The translations under genes and the position numbers were made by a program. Positions 6,933-15,714 of a stretch of 64,000 nucleotides of DNA are shown piece by piece. The first letter of the stretch is position 1; each line of letters begins with the position of its first letter. Source of the stretch: Glycomyces albidus. Lineage in GTDB: Bacteria > Actinomycetota > Actinomycetes > Mycobacteriales > Micromonosporaceae. The notes under the pieces are model-generated. The model was not told where the DNA came from, ran no database searches, and saw nothing but the letters and a program-made list of their open reading frames with translations. Location of the stretch: assembly GCF_009451885.1 (NCBI RefSeq), contig NZ_WIAO01000001.1, forward strand, positions 186,001-250,000, in the 5' to 3' direction.

Positions 6933-9518
6933 ATGGGAGATCGGTACGAGGCGTTCTGCATGGCGGACCCGTCGTTCTACGACGCGATGCACTCGGAGGC
7001 GACGGCCGGCGCTTCGTACGCGGTGGCGGCGCGGCCGCTGCCGGAGGGGTGGCGGTGCTCGGCGAAGGACGACTGGCTGACCGTGCGCCGCGACGAGGCG
7101 CCGCTGCCGCTGCAGGGCTGGAAGATCCACGCCTCGGCGACGCTGGACGCGGCCGAACGGGTCCTGGAGGCGGTGTGGGACTACTGCGTGCCGCGCGGGA
7201 TCCAGTTCAAGTTCCTGCGCTCGCCGGGGGCGTTCCGGGCGCGGGTGTCGAAGTACGCGCCGCGGGGGTTCTCGGGGAAGCTCGTCACGGTCTACCCGGG
7301 CGACGACGCCGAGTGCGAGCGGATCCTGACCGAGCTGGGGGCCGAACTCGACGGCGTGCCGGGCCCGTACATCCTCAGCGACCTGCGCTGGGGCTCGGGG
7401 CCGCTGCATGTGCGGTACGGGGCGTTCGCCAACCGGTTCACCACGGACGCGACCGGCGCGGTGGTGCCGGCCCTGGAGGACGGCGAGGGGAATCTGGTCG
7501 CCGACCGGCGCGACCCGGTGTTCCGGGTCCCGGAGTGGGTCGAGCTGCCGGGGTTCCTCGAACCGCACCTGAAGGCGCGCAACGCGGTCACGGTCACCGA
7601 CATCCCTTACACGATCGAGCGGGTCCTGCACTTCTCCAACGGCGGCGGCATCTACCTGGCCCGGCACGAGGACGGCAGGCAGGTGGTCCTCAAGGAGGGC
7701 CGCCCGCACGCCGGGCTCGACGCGTGGGGCGAGGACGCGGTGCAGCGCGTCGAACGCGAGCACGAGATCCTCTCGCTCCTGGCCGGAGTGCCGGGGATCC
7801 CCGAGGTGTACGAGCTGTTCTGGCTCGGGGAGCACCGGTTCATGGCGATGGAGTACATCGAGGGCGAGGTCCTCAGCAAAGCGGTCGTCACCCGCTACCC
7901 CCTGGTCGATCCGGCCGCGACGGCCGAGGACTACGCGCGGTTCGCCGACTGGGCCCGGGGCGTGTACGACCGGCTGGCCGCGATCGTCGCGGCCGTCCAC
8001 GGCCGCGGGATCGCCTACGGGGACCTGCACCTGTTCAACGTCATGGTCCGGCCCGACGGGAGCCCGTGCCTGCTCGACTTCGAGGTGGCCGGGCCGATCG
8101 GCTCCGAACGCAAAGCGGGCCTGGGCAACCAGGGCTTCGCCGCGCCCCGGTCGATGGCCGGCGCCGAGGCGGACCGGTACTCCCTCGCCTGCATGAAGCT
8201 GGCGCTGTTCCTGCCGATGACGAACCTGCTGGGCCTGCACCGGCTCAAGGCCCGGCACTTCGCCGAGATCATCACCGGGCACTTCCCGGTCCCGGCCGAC
8301 TGGTTCGACGACGCGCTCGAGCGCATCGCCCCGGCCGCGTTCGCGTACGAGCCGCCCCGCATCGACGCCGATCCCGGCGCGTGGCCGGGCGTGCGCGACG
8401 CCATCGCGGCCGCGATCACCGCCGCCGCCACCCCCGACCGGGACGACCGGCTGTTCCCCGGCGACGTCGAGCAGTTCGAGTCCGGCGCCCTCGGCCTGTC
8501 CTTCGGCGCCGCCGGCGTCCTGTACGCCCTGGACGCGGCCGGCGCGGGCCGGTTCGAGCAGTACGAGGCGTGGCTGCGCGACCGCGCGACCGCCCCCGCC
8601 ACGGGCTCGCGCCTCGGCCTCTACGACGGGCTCCTGGGGGCCGCGTTCACTCTGGGCCGCTTCGGGTACGCGCAGGACGCGCTCGACATCGCCGACATCG
8701 TCCTGCGCGAAGACTGGGAGACCCTCGGCGGCGACCTGTCCGGCGGCATCGCCGGCATCGGCCTCGGCCTCCTGCACCTCGGTGCGGCGCACGGCGAACC
8801 GGACCTGACGGCGGCGGGGCTGCGCTGCGCCGGCATCGTCGCGGACCGGCTCGGCGCGGAGACCGGCACCGCGTCGACCAGCGGCGGCCGCGAACCGTGG
8901 GCGGGCCTGATGCGCGGCGGCGCGGGCCGCGCGGTCCTGTTCATGCGCGCCGCCGACGCGACCGGCGACGCCGGCTACCTCGACGCCGCCGAGGCGGCGC
9001 TGCGTGCCGACCTCCGCCGGACCGTCGTGCGCGACAACGGCTCCCGCGAGGTCGACGAGGGCTGGCGCACCATGCCGTACCTCGACGCCGGCAGCGTCGG
9101 CATCGGTCTCGTGCTGGACGCCTTCGCGTCCCGCCGCCCGGTCGCCGACTTCGCGGCGGCCGCGGAGGGCATCGCGGTCACCGCGTCCTCCCCCATGTAC
9201 ATCCTGCCCGGCCTATTCACCGGCCGGGCCGGGATCCTCCTCTACCTGGCCGCACGCACCCAGACTTCCGCTTCGGAACCCTTGGTGCGCAGGCAGGTCG
9301 AGGCGCTCGCTTGGCATGCACTGCCGTACGGCGACGGGATGGCGTTCCCCGGCACCGGGCTGCTGCGGCTGTCGATGGACCTGGCCACCGGCGGTGCGGG
9401 CGTCCTGCTCGCCCTCGGCGCCGTCCACGGCGGGCCCGGACTGCCGCTGGTCGACGACGCCCTCGCCCCACAGACGCCCGCGCCGCCGGCGCGGGTCAGC
9501 GAAATCATCTCCCGATGA
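6933..9518 (+). CDS. lanKC: Class III lanthipeptide synthetase (LanKC, RamC-like)
   Basis: An 861-residue enzyme with the three LanKC parts. An N-terminal lyase-like part (about 1-215) is followed by a Ser/Thr kinase part (about 220-500) with Lys254 in VVLKEG, catalytic GDLHLFN (Asp364) and a DFE metal loop (Asp382). The C-terminal LanC-like cyclase (about 510-861) has Gly-rich helices (SGGIAGIGLGLLH, GRAGILLYLAAR, GGAGVLLALGAVHGG) but none of the Cys-Cys-His zinc ligands of true LanC, as expected for class III. It should phosphorylate Ser/Thr in the precursor encoded 20 bases downstream, eliminate phosphate, and close lanthionine or labionin rings. GGGAGGG before the ATG fixes the start. Confidence 0.93.
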   Translation: MGDRYEAFCMADPSFYDAMHSEATAGASYAVAARPLPEGWRCSAKDDWLTVRRDEAPLPLQGWKIHASATLDAAERVLEAVWDYCVPRGIQFKFLRSPGAFRARVSKYAPRGFSGKLVTVYPGDDAECERILTELGAELDGVPGPYILSDLRWGSGPLHVRYGAFANRFTTDATGAVVPALEDGEGNLVADRRDPVFRVPEWVELPGFLEPHLKARNAVTVTDIPYTIERVLHFSNGGGIYLARHEDGRQVVLKEGRPHAGLDAWGEDAVQRVEREHEILSLLAGVPGIPEVYELFWLGEHRFMAMEYIEGEVLSKAVVTRYPLVDPAATAEDYARFADWARGVYDRLAAIVAAVHGRGIAYGDLHLFNVMVRPDGSPCLLDFEVAGPIGSERKAGLGNQGFAAPRSMAGAEADRYSLACMKLALFLPMTNLLGLHRLKARHFAEIITGHFPVPADWFDDALERIAPAAFAYEPPRIDADPGAWPGVRDAIAAAITAAATPDRDDRLFPGDVEQFESGALGLSFGAAGVLYALDAAGAGRFEQYEAWLRDRATAPATGSRLGLYDGLLGAAFTLGRFGYAQDALDIADIVLREDWETLGGDLSGGIAGIGLGLLHLGAAHGEPDLTAAGLRCAGIVADRLGAETGTASTSGGREPWAGLMRGGAGRAVLFMRAADATGDAGYLDAAEAALRADLRRTVVRDNGSREVDEGWRTMPYLDAGSVGIGLVLDAFASRRPVADFAAAAEGIAVTASSPMYILPGLFTGRAGILLYLAARTQTSASEPLVRRQVEALAWHALPYGDGMAFPGTGLLRLSMDLATGGAGVLLALGAVHGGPGLPLVDDALAPQTPAPPARVSEIISR

Positions 9519-9538: not shown

Positions 9539-9685
9539 ATGGCTCTTCTCGATCTGCAAGGCATGGAGAACGAGGTCGCCACGAAGGGCGGCGGGTCCAG
9601 CGCGAGCGGGCACTCCTGCCCCAGCAACCTGAGCGCCACGCTGTGCGGGGGCACGAGCGGCCTCTCGGTCCTGCTCTGCCACTAG
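9539..9685 (+). CDS. lanA: Class III lanthipeptide precursor, SapB/RamS-like, three ring motifs
   Basis: A 48-residue peptide too short for common ORF cut-offs, 20 bases after the synthetase and preceded by GAAAGGAAGAAG. The leader begins MALLDLQGMENE, matching the LxLQ leader motif of RamS (FDLQSME) that LanKC enzymes recognise. The core contains three SxxSxxxC units: Ser20-Ser23-Cys27, Ser29-Ser32-Cys36 and Ser40-Ser43-Cys47, each able to form a lanthionine or labionin ring. The last two (SNLSATLC and SGLSVLLC, separated by GGT and ending in H) line up with the two rings of the aerial-hypha surfactant SapB; the first is extra. All three Cys fall in such units. The product is probably an amphiphilic, three-ring morphogen or antimicrobial; its activity is inferred. 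Confidence 0.93.
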   Translation: MALLDLQGMENEVATKGGGSSASGHSCPSNLSATLCGGTSGLSVLLCH

Positions 9686-9693
9686 AACCACCC

Positions 9694-9735
9694 GCCGCGG
9701 CCCCGGACTCGGTCACCGAAGTCCGGGGCCGCGGC
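9694..9735 (+). terminator. Hairpin after the lanthipeptide precursor gene
   Basis: A perfect 15-bp inverted repeat (9694-9708 with 9721-9735, loop 12), starting 8 bases after the precursor stop codon and lacking a U-tract. It probably protects or partly terminates the message, giving far more precursor than transporter transcript. Confidence 0.75.
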
Positions 9736-9912
9736 CCCGCACGGGACCGGCCGACGCGGCCGCCGGGAACGCACACCGACGCCCGCGACCGAACGCGGAG
9801 CTCGATCGCGGGCCAGGAGGGCGGAGGCATCGGACGAGGTCGAACCACCGAGGCAGGTCCCGGACGGCCGTGCACGGCCCTCCCCGGCCCCGCTCACCGC
9901 AAGGAGCCGCCC

Positions 9913-10125
9913 GTGATCGCCGAACCTGCCGCGCCCGAAGGGCCGCTGCGCATTCAGGTCCGTGCCGGCTCCCGGCGCCGGACCGGTCGGCCACCCGCAC
10001 CCGCGGCTGCGGCCGGCGAACGGAGCCGCACACGACCAGCACCCGGCTGCGCGACCGCACCGCCTTCGACGGGTCACCGGTGTCCACGACGTTGGAACGC
10101 CGCTTCCAAGGACGACCCTCCCTGA
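9913..10125 (+). pseudogene. Possible vestigial copy of the transporter start
   Basis: The sequence AAGGAGCCGCCCGTGATCGC at 9903 onward nearly repeats the ribosome site and start of the transporter gene at 10483 onward (AAGGAGTCGCCCGTGACCGC). The frame it opens runs 70 codons (MIAEPAAPEGPLRI..., compare MTAETDATTEVPLTF) and then becomes low-complexity Arg/Pro sequence with no recognisable domain. It looks like a decayed partial duplication and is probably not a functional gene. It lacks SxxSxxxC motifs, so it is not a second precursor. Confidence 0.25.
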
Positions 10126-10482
10126 CCGGCACGACTGCCGGCATCCGGTGCGGCGGTCGGCGAACGGGGCCGCACTTGACCAGCACCCGGCTACGCGACC
10201 GCACCGCCCTTGTCGACTCATTCGTGTTCACGGCTATGGAGGTCCGCTTCCCCGGTCGACGCAGACTGGTCGGCGCGATCGCCCATCGGCCACCGTCCTC
10301 CGTTGCCGGGGGCTGCGGCCGGCGATCGGAGCCGCACATGACTGGCCCCCTGCTGTGCGGTCGCGCCGCGGTGGACCGCCCGCCGGCGCTCACGGCTATG
10401 GAACGCCACCACCGTGGCCGGCCTCCACTCACCGATACGGGTCCCGGCCGGCCACCGGCCTCCGGGACTACGGCCTAGGAAA
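10005..10482. repeat. Degenerate tandem repeats, three units of about 140-165 bp
   Basis: Three units start at 10005, 10147 and 10311 with variants of GGCTGCGGCCGGCGAACGGA, continue as GCCGCAC-TGACCAGCACCCGGCT-CGCGACCGCACCGCC, and each carries a second anchor (near 10100, 10243 and 10406) resembling GACGCCGCTTCC-GG-CGACC. A weaker fourth unit may end near 9912. No frame across them encodes a recognisable domain. They fill the space between the lanthipeptide precursor and its ABC transporter; purpose unknown. Confidence 0.6.
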
Positions 10483-10492
10483 GGAGTCGCCC

Positions 10493-12169
10493 GTGACCGC
10501 TGAAACCGATGCTACGACCGAGGTGCCGCTAACCTTCGGGGCCGTGGTGCGGCAGTCGCGGGCGTGGCTGCCGCTGATCGGGGCCGCCGCGCTGCTCGGG
10601 TCACTCGGCATGCTCGCGCTGCCGCTGGCGCTGGCGGCCGCTGTGGACACCGTCGCCGCCGGGCGCGACGCGACCGGGCCGGTCGCCGCAGCCGCGGGGC
10701 TCGTCCTGCTCGGCGTCGCCTGCGATCTCGCCGAAGCCGCAGCGGAGACCTCCTGCGCCGCCGGCGCCTCGGCGCGCCTGCGCACCGGACTGGTCCGGCG
10801 GATGCTCGCCGCACCACACCGCATCGCGCGGTTCGAACCGGGCGACCTCGTCGCGCGCATGTCCGCGGGCGCGGCCGACGCGGGCCATGCCGGACCGAGC
10901 ACCGTCGGCGCGATCGCCGCGGCACTGCCTCCGCTGGGAAGCCTGGCAGTCCTGGTCTGGCTCGACTGGCGGCTCGCCGCCGCATTCGCGGCCGGGCTCG
11001 CCCTCGTCGCCCTCGTCCTGCGGCTCTTCGCCCGCCAGACCGCGGCCGCAGCGCAGCAGTACCAAGCGGCCCAAGGCGAGATGGCCGCCCGCCTCACCGA
11101 GGCGATCGAGGGCAGCCGCACGATCGCCGCCGCCGGGACAACCGGCGCGGAGACCCGACGCGTCCTCGCCGGCCTCCCCGATCTCGCCAGGCACGGCCTC
11201 GCGACCTGGAAGGCCCTGTCGGCCGCCGGGGCACGGGCCGCGATCGCCGGTCCACTCGCGACGATCGGCGTCCTCGCCGTCGCCGGGTTCCTCGTCAGCG
11301 GCGGCAGCCTCACCGCCGGCGAGCTCCTCGCGGCCGGCCAGTACGCGATGATGGGCGCCGGCCTCGGCTCCCTCACCGGTGTCGTCGCCGCCGTCGCCCG
11401 GGCCCGCGCGGCGGTCGCGCGCCTCGCCGACGTCCACGACCTCAGTGCCATGTCATACGGCACCGACGACCTCCCCGCCGGTCCGGGCGGGCTCGAGTTC
11501 ACCTCCGTGACCGTCCGCGGCGACACCGGCCCGATCCTCCGCGACGTCACCTTCCGCATCCCCGGCGGCGCACTCGCGGCCGTGGTCGGCACCGCGGGCT
11601 CGGGGAAGTCGACCCTCGCCGAGACCGCCGTCCGCCTCCGCGACCCCGACAGCGGCACGGTCACGCTCGACGGCCGCCCGCTCCCTGCATTGAGCCGCAC
11701 CGCACTCCGCACCGCCGCGGGCCTCGCCACCGCCCGCCCCGCCCTCGCCGGCGCGACCCTCGCCGACGCCATGGGCCCGGGCCGGCCCCGGGCCGCGGTC
11801 ACCGCGGCCGCGACCGCGGTGGGCGCCCACGATTTCGCGGCCCGCCTTCCCGCAACATATGACACACCACTGCCCGAGGTTCCCATGTCGGGCGGCGAAG
11901 CCCAGCGGATCGGCCTCGCCCGCGCCTGGCACGCCGAACGGCTGCTGGTCCTCGACGACGCGACCTCCAGCCTGGACGTCCTCAGCGCCCGCCGCATCGA
12001 GGACGCGCTCGCGTCGACCGGCCGCACCCGGCTCGCAGTGACCTATGACGCGGCACTGGCCGCCCGCGCCGACCTCGTGGTCTGGCTGCACGAGGGATCG
12101 GTCCGCGCGGTCGGACGGCACGAGGCGCTGTGGACCGACCCGGACTACCGGGCGGTGTTCGCCCGATGA
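10493..12169 (+). CDS. ABC transporter, fused membrane and ATPase domains (RamA-like)
   Basis: A 558-residue exporter subunit. An N-terminal transmembrane domain (about residues 20-310, with Ala/Leu-rich helices) is followed by a nucleotide-binding domain: Walker A GTAGSGKST, signature MSGGEAQRIGLARA, Walker B LLVLDDATSSLD. The Q-loop region is poorly conserved (TARPALAGATL) and the H-loop reads AVTYDAAL instead of a His, so ATP hydrolysis by this half may be degenerate. It starts with GTG after AAAGGAG and overlaps the next transporter gene by ATGA. As in ram clusters, the pair probably exports the modified peptide as a heterodimer. Confidence 0.9.
   Translation: MTAETDATTEVPLTFGAVVRQSRAWLPLIGAAALLGSLGMLALPLALAAAVDTVAAGRDATGPVAAAAGLVLLGVACDLAEAAAETSCAAGASARLRTGLVRRMLAAPHRIARFEPGDLVARMSAGAADAGHAGPSTVGAIAAALPPLGSLAVLVWLDWRLAAAFAAGLALVALVLRLFARQTAAAAQQYQAAQGEMAARLTEAIEGSRTIAAAGTTGAETRRVLAGLPDLARHGLATWKALSAAGARAAIAGPLATIGVLAVAGFLVSGGSLTAGELLAAGQYAMMGAGLGSLTGVVAAVARARAAVARLADVHDLSAMSYGTDDLPAGPGGLEFTSVTVRGDTGPILRDVTFRIPGGALAAVVGTAGSGKSTLAETAVRLRDPDSGTVTLDGRPLPALSRTALRTAAGLATARPALAGATLADAMGPGRPRAAVTAAATAVGAHDFAARLPATYDTPLPEVPMSGGEAQRIGLARAWHAERLLVLDDATSSLDVLSARRIEDALASTGRTRLAVTYDAALAARADLVVWLHEGSVRAVGRHEALWTDPDYRAVFAR
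11444..11460 (+). repeat. Dispersed motif copy H (partial)
   Basis: AGTGCCATGTCATACGG, a partial copy of the AGTGGCATGTCACATGTC motif family, inside the first ABC transporter gene at the linker before its ATPase domain. It is the most divergent copy. Confidence 0.4.
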
Positions 12170-14217
12170 AGCGCGAGATCCGCTACGCCGCATCGGGATT
12201 GCGACCCCGCGCAGTCGCGGCCCTGCTGGCCTGGTCGGCGCTGGAGGTCCTGCCGACGGCCCTGTTCGGCCTCATGCTCGCCCGCGCGGTCGACGAGGGG
12301 TTCCTGGCGGGGCGGCCCTGGACGGGCGCGGCCTGGCTGGGCGGGGTCCTGGTCGCCGCGATCGTGGGCGCCCTGGGGGCGGGGCGCGTGTATGCAGTGC
12401 TCGGTGCGGTGGTCGAGCCGTTCCGCGACCGCCTGGTGCGCCGGGTGGTCCACCGCTCGCTGCATCGGGCGGTCGCGGGGCGGCCCGAGATCGGGGCGCT
12501 GTCGCTGCTGACCCGGCAGGTCGAGATCGCACGCGACGCGTATGCCGGCATCGTGGTCTCGGTGCGCGGCTGCCTGGTCACGACGGTGGGCGTCGGCGCC
12601 GGGCTGCTGGCGCTCGACCCGCGGCTCGCGCTCCTGGTCCTGCCGCCGTTCTTCCTGGGGCTGTTCGCGTTCGCGGCGACGCTCGGTTTCGCTGCCGGCC
12701 GCCAGCGGGACGCCGCGGACGCCGACGCGGACTTGACCGACCGCGCCGGCCAGGTGGCCGCGGCCGCCCGGGACCTGGCCGCCTGCGGCGGCGAATCCCA
12801 GGGTGAAGCGCTGGCGGCCGAGCCGATCGCGGCCCTGGCGAAGGCGGAACGGGCCCTCGCGGCGGCCGCCGCCCTCCGCACGCTCTGCTTCGCCGTCGGC
12901 GGCTGGCTTCCGCTGCTCATCCTCCTGGCCGCCGCCACGTGGCTGCTCGACCGGGGCGTCACCGCCGGGGCCCTCACCGGCGCCCTCCTTTACGTCCTCA
13001 CCGGGCTCCAACCGGCCCTCGCCTCCCTGATCTCCGGCCTCGGCACCAGCGGTCTGCGCCTCTACATCGCCCTGACGCGCATCCTCCCGGCCTTGTCGCA
13101 CCCCGAGAGCACCATCGAACCGGGGGCGACACCGAACCAGAACACCACTCACCTTGACCGGCCTCGCACCCCCGACCCGACCGCACCGTCGGACCCCCAG
13201 GGCACTATCGAAACGGGGGCGCCAGACAATCCGACGCCTGCTCGCATCCACGCCTCCCAGGCCGCCGGTCCGGCCGAGCAGCCAGGCCGGCAGGTCACTC
13301 CCGAAGCGGAGACGGCACCGAAACCGAGCAATGGCCATCTTCGGCTGCGACCCAAGGTGTCGGACCTCTCCAGCATGATGGCAACGGGAAGCCCCCCGGG
13401 CACCCGAGTTGAAGGCAGCGGGCTGGCGGATTCCGATCGCTCGACGTCCGCTTCGGCCGCCGGGCGCCCAGTCGGCCCCCGGAGCGCACCGGCCCCGGTC
13501 CTCGCGGCGCACGGCCTGACCTTCGCGTACGGCCCGCACTCCGCGCCGGCCGTCGAGGATCTCGAGCTCGCGATCCAGGCCGGCGATCACCTGGCGGTCG
13601 TCGGGCCCAGCGGCATCGGCAAGTCGACACTCGCGGCACTCCTGTGTGGACTCATCCGCCCCGACCGCGGCACGGTCGCCTACGCCGGTGCCGACGCCGC
13701 GCGGCTGTCGCCGCGCGCGCTCGCCCGCCGTCGCGTACTGCTGCCGCAGGGCGGGTACGTCTTCACCGGGACCGTCCGCGCGAATCTCGCCTACCTCGAT
13801 CCGACCGCCGCTGACGAGGCGATCACCGCCGCGGCGGCGGCGGTCGGCGCCGACGGGCTCGTCGACCGGCTCGGCGGTCTCGGCGCCGCGGTGGAACCGC
13901 GCAGCCTCTCCAACGGCGAACGCCAGCTCCTCGCCCTCGCGCGGGCGTACCTGTCGCCCGCGCCGCTCGCGATCCTCGACGAGGCCACCTGCCATCTCGA
14001 CCCGGCCGCCGAGGAGCGGGCCGAGCGGGCGTTCGCCGAACGCGGCACGCTCGTGGTGATCGCGCACCGTCCGTCGTCCGCCCTGCGCGCCGAGCGGGTC
14101 CTGGTCCTCGACGGCGGCACCGCCGTCCAAGGCGACCGCGAACTGCTCCAAGGCATCTCGCCGCTGTTCCGTGAACTCGTCGCCCAAGGATCCGGGACGC
14201 CGGCGGCGACCTCGTAG
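12166..14217 (+). CDS. ABC transporter, fused membrane and ATPase domains, with long linker (RamB-like)
   Basis: A 683-residue exporter subunit, translationally coupled (ATGA) to the preceding one. The transmembrane domain covers about residues 1-310. The ATPase domain begins near 450 (LAAHGLTFAYGPHSAPAV) with Walker A GPSGIGKST, Q-loop LLPQGGYVFTG, signature LSNGERQLLALARA, Walker B LAILDEATCHLD and switch His in VVIAHRP, so this half looks catalytically complete. Between them, about residues 315-445, is a Pro/Thr/Ser-rich linker far longer than usual, with an internal repeat (STIEPGATPNQ and GTIETGAPDNP). The partner half seems degenerate, so this one would supply the active site. Confidence 0.9.
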   Translation: MKREIRYAASGLRPRAVAALLAWSALEVLPTALFGLMLARAVDEGFLAGRPWTGAAWLGGVLVAAIVGALGAGRVYAVLGAVVEPFRDRLVRRVVHRSLHRAVAGRPEIGALSLLTRQVEIARDAYAGIVVSVRGCLVTTVGVGAGLLALDPRLALLVLPPFFLGLFAFAATLGFAAGRQRDAADADADLTDRAGQVAAAARDLAACGGESQGEALAAEPIAALAKAERALAAAAALRTLCFAVGGWLPLLILLAAATWLLDRGVTAGALTGALLYVLTGLQPALASLISGLGTSGLRLYIALTRILPALSHPESTIEPGATPNQNTTHLDRPRTPDPTAPSDPQGTIETGAPDNPTPARIHASQAAGPAEQPGRQVTPEAETAPKPSNGHLRLRPKVSDLSSMMATGSPPGTRVEGSGLADSDRSTSASAAGRPVGPRSAPAPVLAAHGLTFAYGPHSAPAVEDLELAIQAGDHLAVVGPSGIGKSTLAALLCGLIRPDRGTVAYAGADAARLSPRALARRRVLLPQGGYVFTGTVRANLAYLDPTAADEAITAAAAAVGADGLVDRLGGLGAAVEPRSLSNGERQLLALARAYLSPAPLAILDEATCHLDPAAEERAERAFAERGTLVVIAHRPSSALRAERVLVLDGGTAVQGDRELLQGISPLFRELVAQGSGTPAATS

Positions 14218-15111: not shown

Positions 15112-15714
15112 TCAGATCCAGCCGGCCTCTTGGGCGATCCGGATCGCGTCGATGCGGCTGCGCGCGCCGGACTTGTGAATCGCGTTCGACAGGTGGTTCC
15201 GCACCGTCCCGACCCGCAGGAACAGCTTGTCGGCGATCTCGCACGTGCGCGCCCCGGTCGCGGCGAGCCCGAGGACCTCCCGCTCGCGCGGGGTCAGCGG
15301 GTTGGCGCGCGAGCGGATCGCGGCCAGGGCGATGTCGGCGTCGAGGACCGGCTCCCCGCGAGTGAGCTTGCGGATGCCCTCGACGAAGCGGTCGAAGGAG
15401 TCCCCGGTCGTCATGATGCCCACGCGCGGCGCGAAGCGGGTGAGCTCGGGCCGGACCTCGCCGGGCCGGCGCGGGTCCATCAGCAGCAGGACGTTCGACT
15501 CCGGCAGCGCCGCGCAGACTGAGGCCACGTGGTCGTGGGTCAGTAAACCGGCTTCATGCACCACGACGTGCGGCCGCACCCGGCGGGCCACCGCGATGAC
15601 GTCCTCGCCTTCGGGGAGGTCGTGCACCGCCGCGATGTCGCGGACGCCGTCGAGGCAGCGCGCGAGCGCGGTCCGCCAAAGGTCCTGGTCGTGCTTGAGG
15701 AGAACCCGAATCAT
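15112..15714 (-). CDS. ramR: RamR/AmfR-type orphan response regulator
   Basis: A 200-residue LuxR/NarL-type activator. Residues 1-120 form a receiver-like domain and about 135-200 the helix-turn-helix (LTPREREVLGLAATGARTCE, then VGTVRNHLSNAIHKSGARS, ending IDAIRIAQEAGWI). The receiver is atypical: the acidic pair near residues 8-9 reads HD, and the phosphoacceptor position reads VVVHEAG, with Glu54 where Asp is expected. Size, ending and location next to ramCSAB-like genes match RamR/AmfR, which activate such operons. It is convergent with the cluster, as in Streptomyces ram. GGGTGGG precedes the ATG. A Glu at the phosphosite might mimic phosphorylation; that is inference. Confidence 0.85.
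   Translation of the reverse strand: MIRVLLKHDQDLWRTALARCLDGVRDIAAVHDLPEGEDVIAVARRVRPHVVVHEAGLLTHDHVASVCAALPESNVLLLMDPRRPGEVRPELTRFAPRVGIMTTGDSFDRFVEGIRKLTRGEPVLDADIALAAIRSRANPLTPREREVLGLAATGARTCEIADKLFLRVGTVRNHLSNAIHKSGARSRIDAIRIAQEAGWI

What the first reader, a model, noticed from the sequence alone, without database searches (positions are those of the whole stretch)
9539..9685. SapB-like lanthipeptide precursor with three tandem SxxSxxxC ring motifs
The 48-residue peptide has a RamS-like leader (LDLQGME) and three SxxSxxxC units (Ser20/23-Cys27, Ser29/32-Cys36, Ser40/43-Cys47), and nothing is left of Cys outside them. SapB itself has two. The last two units align with SapB, the first is added at the N-terminus. 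This predicts a three-ring product with possibly different surface activity or target, in a gene that length-based ORF finders miss.
Basis: partly seen in the sequence, partly recalled or inferred. Interest (0 to 1): 0.85.

Follow-up and report, generated by a model that had tools for sequence, protein, structure and literature searches.

The report
Three-ring SapB-like peptide of Glycomyces
The window holds a real gene for a small lanthionine peptide with three ring units instead of the usual two, but the same three-unit peptide is common in this genus and its relatives, and a near-identical one in a cousin is very probably the published stackepeptin, so it is a new member of a known kind.

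Summary
Window 9539-9685 encodes a 48-residue class III lanthipeptide precursor with three SxxSxxxC units and no other Cys. It starts 20 bases after a class III synthetase gene (LanKC); two ABC exporter genes and a LuxR-type regulator gene follow. It passes the Pfam RamS and NCBIfam SapB/AmfS cut-offs. The three-unit form is not new. It is in 10 of 22 genomes of the genus and in 11 of 80 named LanKC loci, among them Actinoplanes, Phytohabitans, Kibdelosporangium and Actinophytocola. A genome with exactly the length of Stackebrandtia nassauensis encodes a core identical at 27 of 29 residues, very probably the published 'supersized' stackepeptin (paper not read). In a LanKC tree the 23 three-unit rows fall in one clade with one two-unit member, G. 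xiaoerkulensis: most simply one gain of a unit and one loss. One lead is left: three-unit peptides carry histidines in a ring (23 of 27) and after the last Cys (24 of 27), two-unit ones hardly ever (0 and 2 of 74). Ring chemistry and function were not tested.

The parts
6933..9518 (+). LanKC, class III lanthionine synthetase (lyase, kinase, cyclase)
   Evidence: NCBIfam NF038151 1027.9 bits (cut-off 575), class IV model NF038150 351.6 (cut-off 650, not met); Pfam RamC_N 267.9 bits; WKIH, GDL and DFE motifs kept in the three printed alignments with solved LanKC structures
9539..9685 (+). lanA, 48-aa precursor with three SxxSxxxC units
   Evidence: Pfam RamS 56.2 bits (cut-off 24.3); NCBIfam SapB_AmfS 48.1 bits (cut-off 25)
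9694..9735 (+). hairpin with perfect 16-base arms just after lanA, possibly a partial terminator or an mRNA 3' end (role inferred; no run of T follows)
   Evidence: RNA fold -47.9 kcal/mol, z -5.43, 0 of 200 shuffles as good
10493..12169 (+). ABC half-transporter 1
   Evidence: Pfam ABC_membrane 66.4 and ABC_tran 63.2 bits, both over their cut-offs
12166..14217 (+). ABC half-transporter 2
   Evidence: Pfam ABC_tran 82.5 bits over its cut-off; ABC_membrane 20 bits, under its cut-off of 28
15112..15714 (-). LuxR-type regulator gene; membership in the cluster inferred from synteny
   Evidence: Pfam GerE 52.2 bits (cut-off 23.5); no NCBIfam equivalog cut-off met; a homologue in 27 of 29 compared loci

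Best explanation
This is the Glycomyces orthologue of the stackepeptin/SapB-type cluster. The LLDLQ leader recruits LanKC; its kinase and lyase dehydrate Ser20, 23, 29, 32, 40 and 43, and its cyclase joins each Ser pair to the next Cys, giving three lanthionine or labionin rings. The ABC pair exports the peptide and a protease encoded elsewhere trims the leader. The product is most likely an amphiphilic surface or morphogenetic peptide of the SapB kind, with a polar His-bearing N-terminal ring and two more hydrophobic rings. Shown here: gene, family, synteny, constraint, clustering of the three-unit form in one LanKC clade. Inferred: all chemistry, export, trimming and function.
For: Family cut-offs met by precursor and LanKC. 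ABC1 and ABC2 homologues in 28 of 29 compared loci, a regulator homologue in 27 of 29 (L025 and L134 are one locus). 10 of 22 genus genomes carry a three-unit precursor. Core 27 of 29 identical to that of G066, a single contig of 6,841,557 bp, the length in the S. nassauensis genome abstract; it is the only RamS match there, beside the only LanKC over the class III cut-off. The 23 three-unit rows lie in one clade of 24, SH-aLRT 100 (same). A frame with four chaplin-domain matches is in the own genome, and one M1 peptidase, the family of the class III leader protease AplP (PMC10885120 passage). Mean hydropathy rises from unit 1 to unit 3: -0.31, 0.76, 2.01.
Against: No product, dehydration or ring was seen. 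11 of 22 genus genomes gave no precursor at E <= 0.1, so the peptide is dispensable or patchy. ABC2 misses the Pfam ABC_membrane cut-off. PMC4255298 (passage) found ramR only in streptomycetes, so the regulator need not be a RamR. The M1 family is in 8 of 14 control genomes, so its presence says little. The stackepeptin paper was not read.
Confidence: 0.75

Rival explanations
1. The third unit changes the role: the product is a metal-binding or His-crosslinked peptide that uses His25 in ring 1 and His48 at the C-terminus, not chiefly a surfactant.
For: Among 101 distinct precursors, His after the last Cys is in 24 of 27 three-unit and 2 of 74 two-unit peptides; His within a ring in 23 of 27 and 0 of 74 (by my reading of that list ring 1 itself has it in 22 of 27, L131 having it in ring 3). 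The one two-unit member of the clade, G. xiaoerkulensis, lacks unit 1 and has neither His. A class III peptide that binds copper through a His crosslink exists (noursin, PMC10206099 abstract and passages).
Against: The counts follow one clade, so they are not independent; there is one informative event. L130, L132 and L133 have ring His but no tail His; L023, L026, L127 and L129 have tail His but no ring His. Noursin-type LanKCs form a separate group from RamC (PMC10206099 passage).
Confidence: 0.1
2. Unit 1 is not closed into a ring: only units 2 and 3 mature, and the N-terminal stretch is a linker or is trimmed away with the leader.
For: Unit 1 is polar and unlike SapB rings; in the Actinoplanes group it is shortened to SxxSxxC; one lineage dropped it.
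Against: None of the 27 distinct three-unit peptides has a Cys outside the units (they were picked by this motif, so the Ser/Ser/Cys pattern itself is no independent evidence). Around it GHSCPSN is kept in the 14 compared relatives (likewise chosen by SSxSGHSC).
Confidence: 0.1

Closest known systems
Stackepeptin of Stackebrandtia nassauensis (Jungmann et al. 2016; citation seen, paper not held and not read)
   Same: Class III, multiplied Ser/Ser/Cys motif (title); the only RamS-type precursor in the genome of that length has 27 of 29 core residues of the window peptide
   Different: Two core residues (A22G, L46I in window numbering) and the leader; another genus
SapB / AmfS (RamS family)
   Same: LDLQ leader, SxxSxxxC units, LanKC, two ABC genes, regulator nearby
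   Different: Two units in SapB-type precursors (67 of 80 named LanKC loci) against three here; a polar, His-bearing first unit
Noursin (PMC10206099, passages)
   Same: Class III peptide in which a His matters
   Different: One Cys and an S9 peptidase in the cluster; no sign here of a His crosslink

Membership tests
Class III lanthipeptides, SapB/AmfS (RamS) family | Precursor over the curated family cut-off | tested here: met
   RamS 56.2 against 24.3; SapB_AmfS 48.1 against 25 and lanthi_III_b 30.9 against 30; lanthi_III_a not met, 13.4 against 22
Class III lanthipeptides, SapB/AmfS (RamS) family | Adjacent class III synthetase LanKC, not class IV | tested here: met
   NF038151 1027.9 against 575; NF038150 351.6 against 650
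Class III lanthipeptides, SapB/AmfS (RamS) family | Lanthionine or labionin rings in the product | not testable with these tools
   needs mass spectrometry
Class III lanthipeptides, SapB/AmfS (RamS) family | Role in aerial growth | not testable with these tools
   a four-match chaplin frame in the genome is only circumstantial
Stackepeptin-type (three-unit) subgroup | Three Ser/Ser/Cys units in the core | tested here: met
Stackepeptin-type (three-unit) subgroup | LanKC in the same clade as that of S. nassauensis | tested here: met
   Both in the clade of 24 and in its subclade of 9 rows (SH-aLRT 97); G066 taken as S. nassauensis by length
Stackepeptin-type (three-unit) subgroup | Precursor identical or orthologous to the published stackepeptin sequence | tested here: inconclusive
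   The published sequence was not seen; identification rests on genome length and on being the only RamS match there

The most novel reading that the evidence does not exclude
The third ring is a histidine device rather than a longer surfactant: unit 1 was gained together with His in ring 1 and at the C-terminus, so the three-ring peptides bind a metal or are held ring-to-tail, a property that SapB lacks and that G. xiaoerkulensis gave up when it dropped unit 1 and both His.
Probability: 0.1. Interest if true: 0.6.

Novelty: new member of a known kind. Interest (0 to 1): 0.25.

Why it matters
It turns one published oddity into a clade that spans Glycomycetaceae, Micromonosporaceae and Pseudonocardiaceae, with an inferred direction of change (one gain, one loss) and a natural two-unit relative for comparison. 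What the extra ring does can then be tested by comparing two close relatives.

Tried and rejected
Chance motif: rejected. A second precursor in the own genome: two further weak matches, E 1.6 and 3.7, 37 and 52% identity, with no such precursor in their loci by my motif scan. Plasmid copies: no match at E <= 0.01. Repeats downstream of lanA as further precursors: the motif scan of the own locus gave lanA alone (locus L001, which covers about 1.5 kb either side), and the only match of the repeat stretch in the genome is itself (40 of 219 first-look candidates scored). Papers: 'stackepeptin' 7 listed; 'class III lanthipeptide' with 'three labionin' 0; 'Glycomyces' with 'lanthipeptide' 4 listed, none about this peptide by title (not opened); 'Stackebrandtia' with 'lanthipeptide' 3; 'Stackebrandtia nassauensis' with 'lantibiotic' 6; 'class III lanthipeptide', 'SapB' and 'labionin' 10. 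These searches cover open-licence papers only. Rooting with the far homologues L140 and L141 gave end branches of 4.9 and 7.1 changes per column, so that root is unsafe; the midpoint root is for drawing only. The direction of change therefore rests on parsimony. L032 appears with three units because of a TxxT in its leader; I count it as two. The SapB unit-2 hydropathy line used a segment one residue short and is not used.

Full report
Observation. Frame 9539-9685 (+) reads MALLDLQGMENEVATKGGGSSASGHSCPSNLSATLCGGTSGLSVLLCH and stop. Units lie at residues 20-27, 29-36 and 40-47 and use all three Cys. 0 of 200,000 shuffles of the peptide, and 0 of 200,000 of its last 29 residues, gave three units; no other place in the six frames of the window has two units within 14 residues. 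Against 14 chosen relatives the core has 4-10 synonymous and 0-5 nonsynonymous codon differences.

Setting. LanKC (6933-9518) ends 20 bases before lanA; two ABC half-transporter genes (10493-12169, 12166-14217) follow, and a LuxR-type regulator gene lies beyond on the other strand (15112-15714). The precursor meets the cut-offs of Pfam RamS and NCBIfam SapB_AmfS, just meets lanthi_III_b and fails lanthi_III_a; LanKC meets the class III and not the class IV model. The three printed alignments with solved synthetases keep WKIH, GDL and DFE; the roles of the corresponding residues in ThurKC come from passages of PMC10604976. In 29 loci compared, ABC1 and ABC2 homologues were found in 28 and a regulator homologue in 27, in L126 and L133 upstream of LanKC; L135 (the region of a weak match) has none, L015 ends before, and L025 and L134 are the same locus. 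A perfect 16-base hairpin follows lanA.

Relatives. The window's LanKC is 88-89% identical to those of Glycomyces dulcitolivorans, G. terrestris and G. sambucus. In the genus 11 of 22 genomes, the own one included, have a precursor at E <= 0.1: ten with three units and one (G021) with two. G021 is G. xiaoerkulensis by peptide and contig length. Of 80 named LanKC loci (the best 80 of 206 relatives), my motif scans found a precursor in 78: 11 with three units, 67 with two; none in L039 and L094. The 11 are six Glycomyces, Kibdelosporangium banguiense, Actinophytocola xinjiangensis, Actinoplanes flavus and A. siamensis (first unit SxxSxxC) and Phytohabitans maris. In 101 genomes sampled from the family, 40 match RamS at E <= 0.01, and further three-unit peptides are among them.

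Prior art. G066 is a single contig of 6,841,557 bp, the length given in the abstract of the S. nassauensis genome paper (PMC3035245, outline and abstract). Its only RamS match is MALLDLQGLESPADLSATRGGSSGSGHSCPSNLSATLCGGTSGLSVLICH, with 27 of 29 core residues of the window peptide. The stackepeptin title ('supersized ... [quoted passage not shown] PMC6429369 (passage) ties stackepeptins to S. nassauensis. Table 2 of PMC11251773 (passage) puts stackepeptin and SapB in one subfamily with 2-3 Cys. That stackepeptin has three such motifs is otherwise my recollection.

Evolution. In a LanKC tree of 56 rows the 23 three-unit rows lie in one clade of 24 (SH-aLRT 100) whose only two-unit row is G. xiaoerkulensis, sister to the three-unit G. 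salinus (SH-aLRT 100); two changes of label are needed against about 18 when labels are shuffled, 0 of 500 as low. The 51-row tree agrees, with an unsafe root. One gain and one loss is the simplest reading. Core scores mostly favour units 2+3 as the SapB-equivalent pair, with the exceptions given under the observation check.

Mechanism. From knowledge of the family: the leader helix binds LanKC (the LELQL motif is critical in ThurKC, PMC10604976 passage), Ser are phosphorylated and eliminated, Cys close the rings with or without labionin, the ABC pair exports, an unlinked protease trims. The genome has one M1 peptidase and a frame with four chaplin-domain matches. Hydropathy rises from unit 1 to unit 3. 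None of the steps was tested.

Leftover. Of 101 distinct precursors (those with an LDLQ-like leader and at least two units), His follows the last Cys in 24 of 27 three-unit and 2 of 74 two-unit peptides, and His lies in a ring in 23 of 27 and 0 of 74. The clade makes these counts dependent. The one separate event, G. xiaoerkulensis, lost unit 1 and has neither His; seven other three-unit peptides have only one of the two (L130, L132, L133; L023, L026, L127, L129). I regard this as a lead.

Verdict. Real and well formed, but ordinary for its lineage: a new member of the stackepeptin/SapB kind.

Noticed in passing
window 9865-10504: Between lanA and ABC1 lie three head-to-tail copies of a 144-base repeat (9994-10443, 69-74% identical to the first copy) and a 60-base duplication of the stretch before the ABC1 start (9865-9924 and 10445-10504). 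No such repeat was reported at the same place in L015, L016, L017 and L018.
   Followed up: partly
L025 8624-8752 (G. xiaoerkulensis; same as L013 and L134): A natural two-unit precursor inside the three-unit clade, lacking unit 1, ring His and tail His, beside an intact LanKC frame.
   Followed up: partly
G000:C7:120630-121268 (-): Four chaplin-domain (PF03777) matches in register within one open frame of 335 codons.
   Followed up: no
window about 13110-13500: ABC2 has a long Pro/Ser/Thr-rich stretch between membrane and ATPase parts; in most relatives the tblastn match breaks there.
   Followed up: no
L104, L099, L100, L107, L116: Some relatives have two or three tandem, nearly identical two-unit precursor genes instead of one longer precursor.
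   Followed up: no
L140 (G021) and L141 (G066): Second LanKC-like genes, under the class III cut-off (443.9 and 287.5 bits).
   Followed up: no
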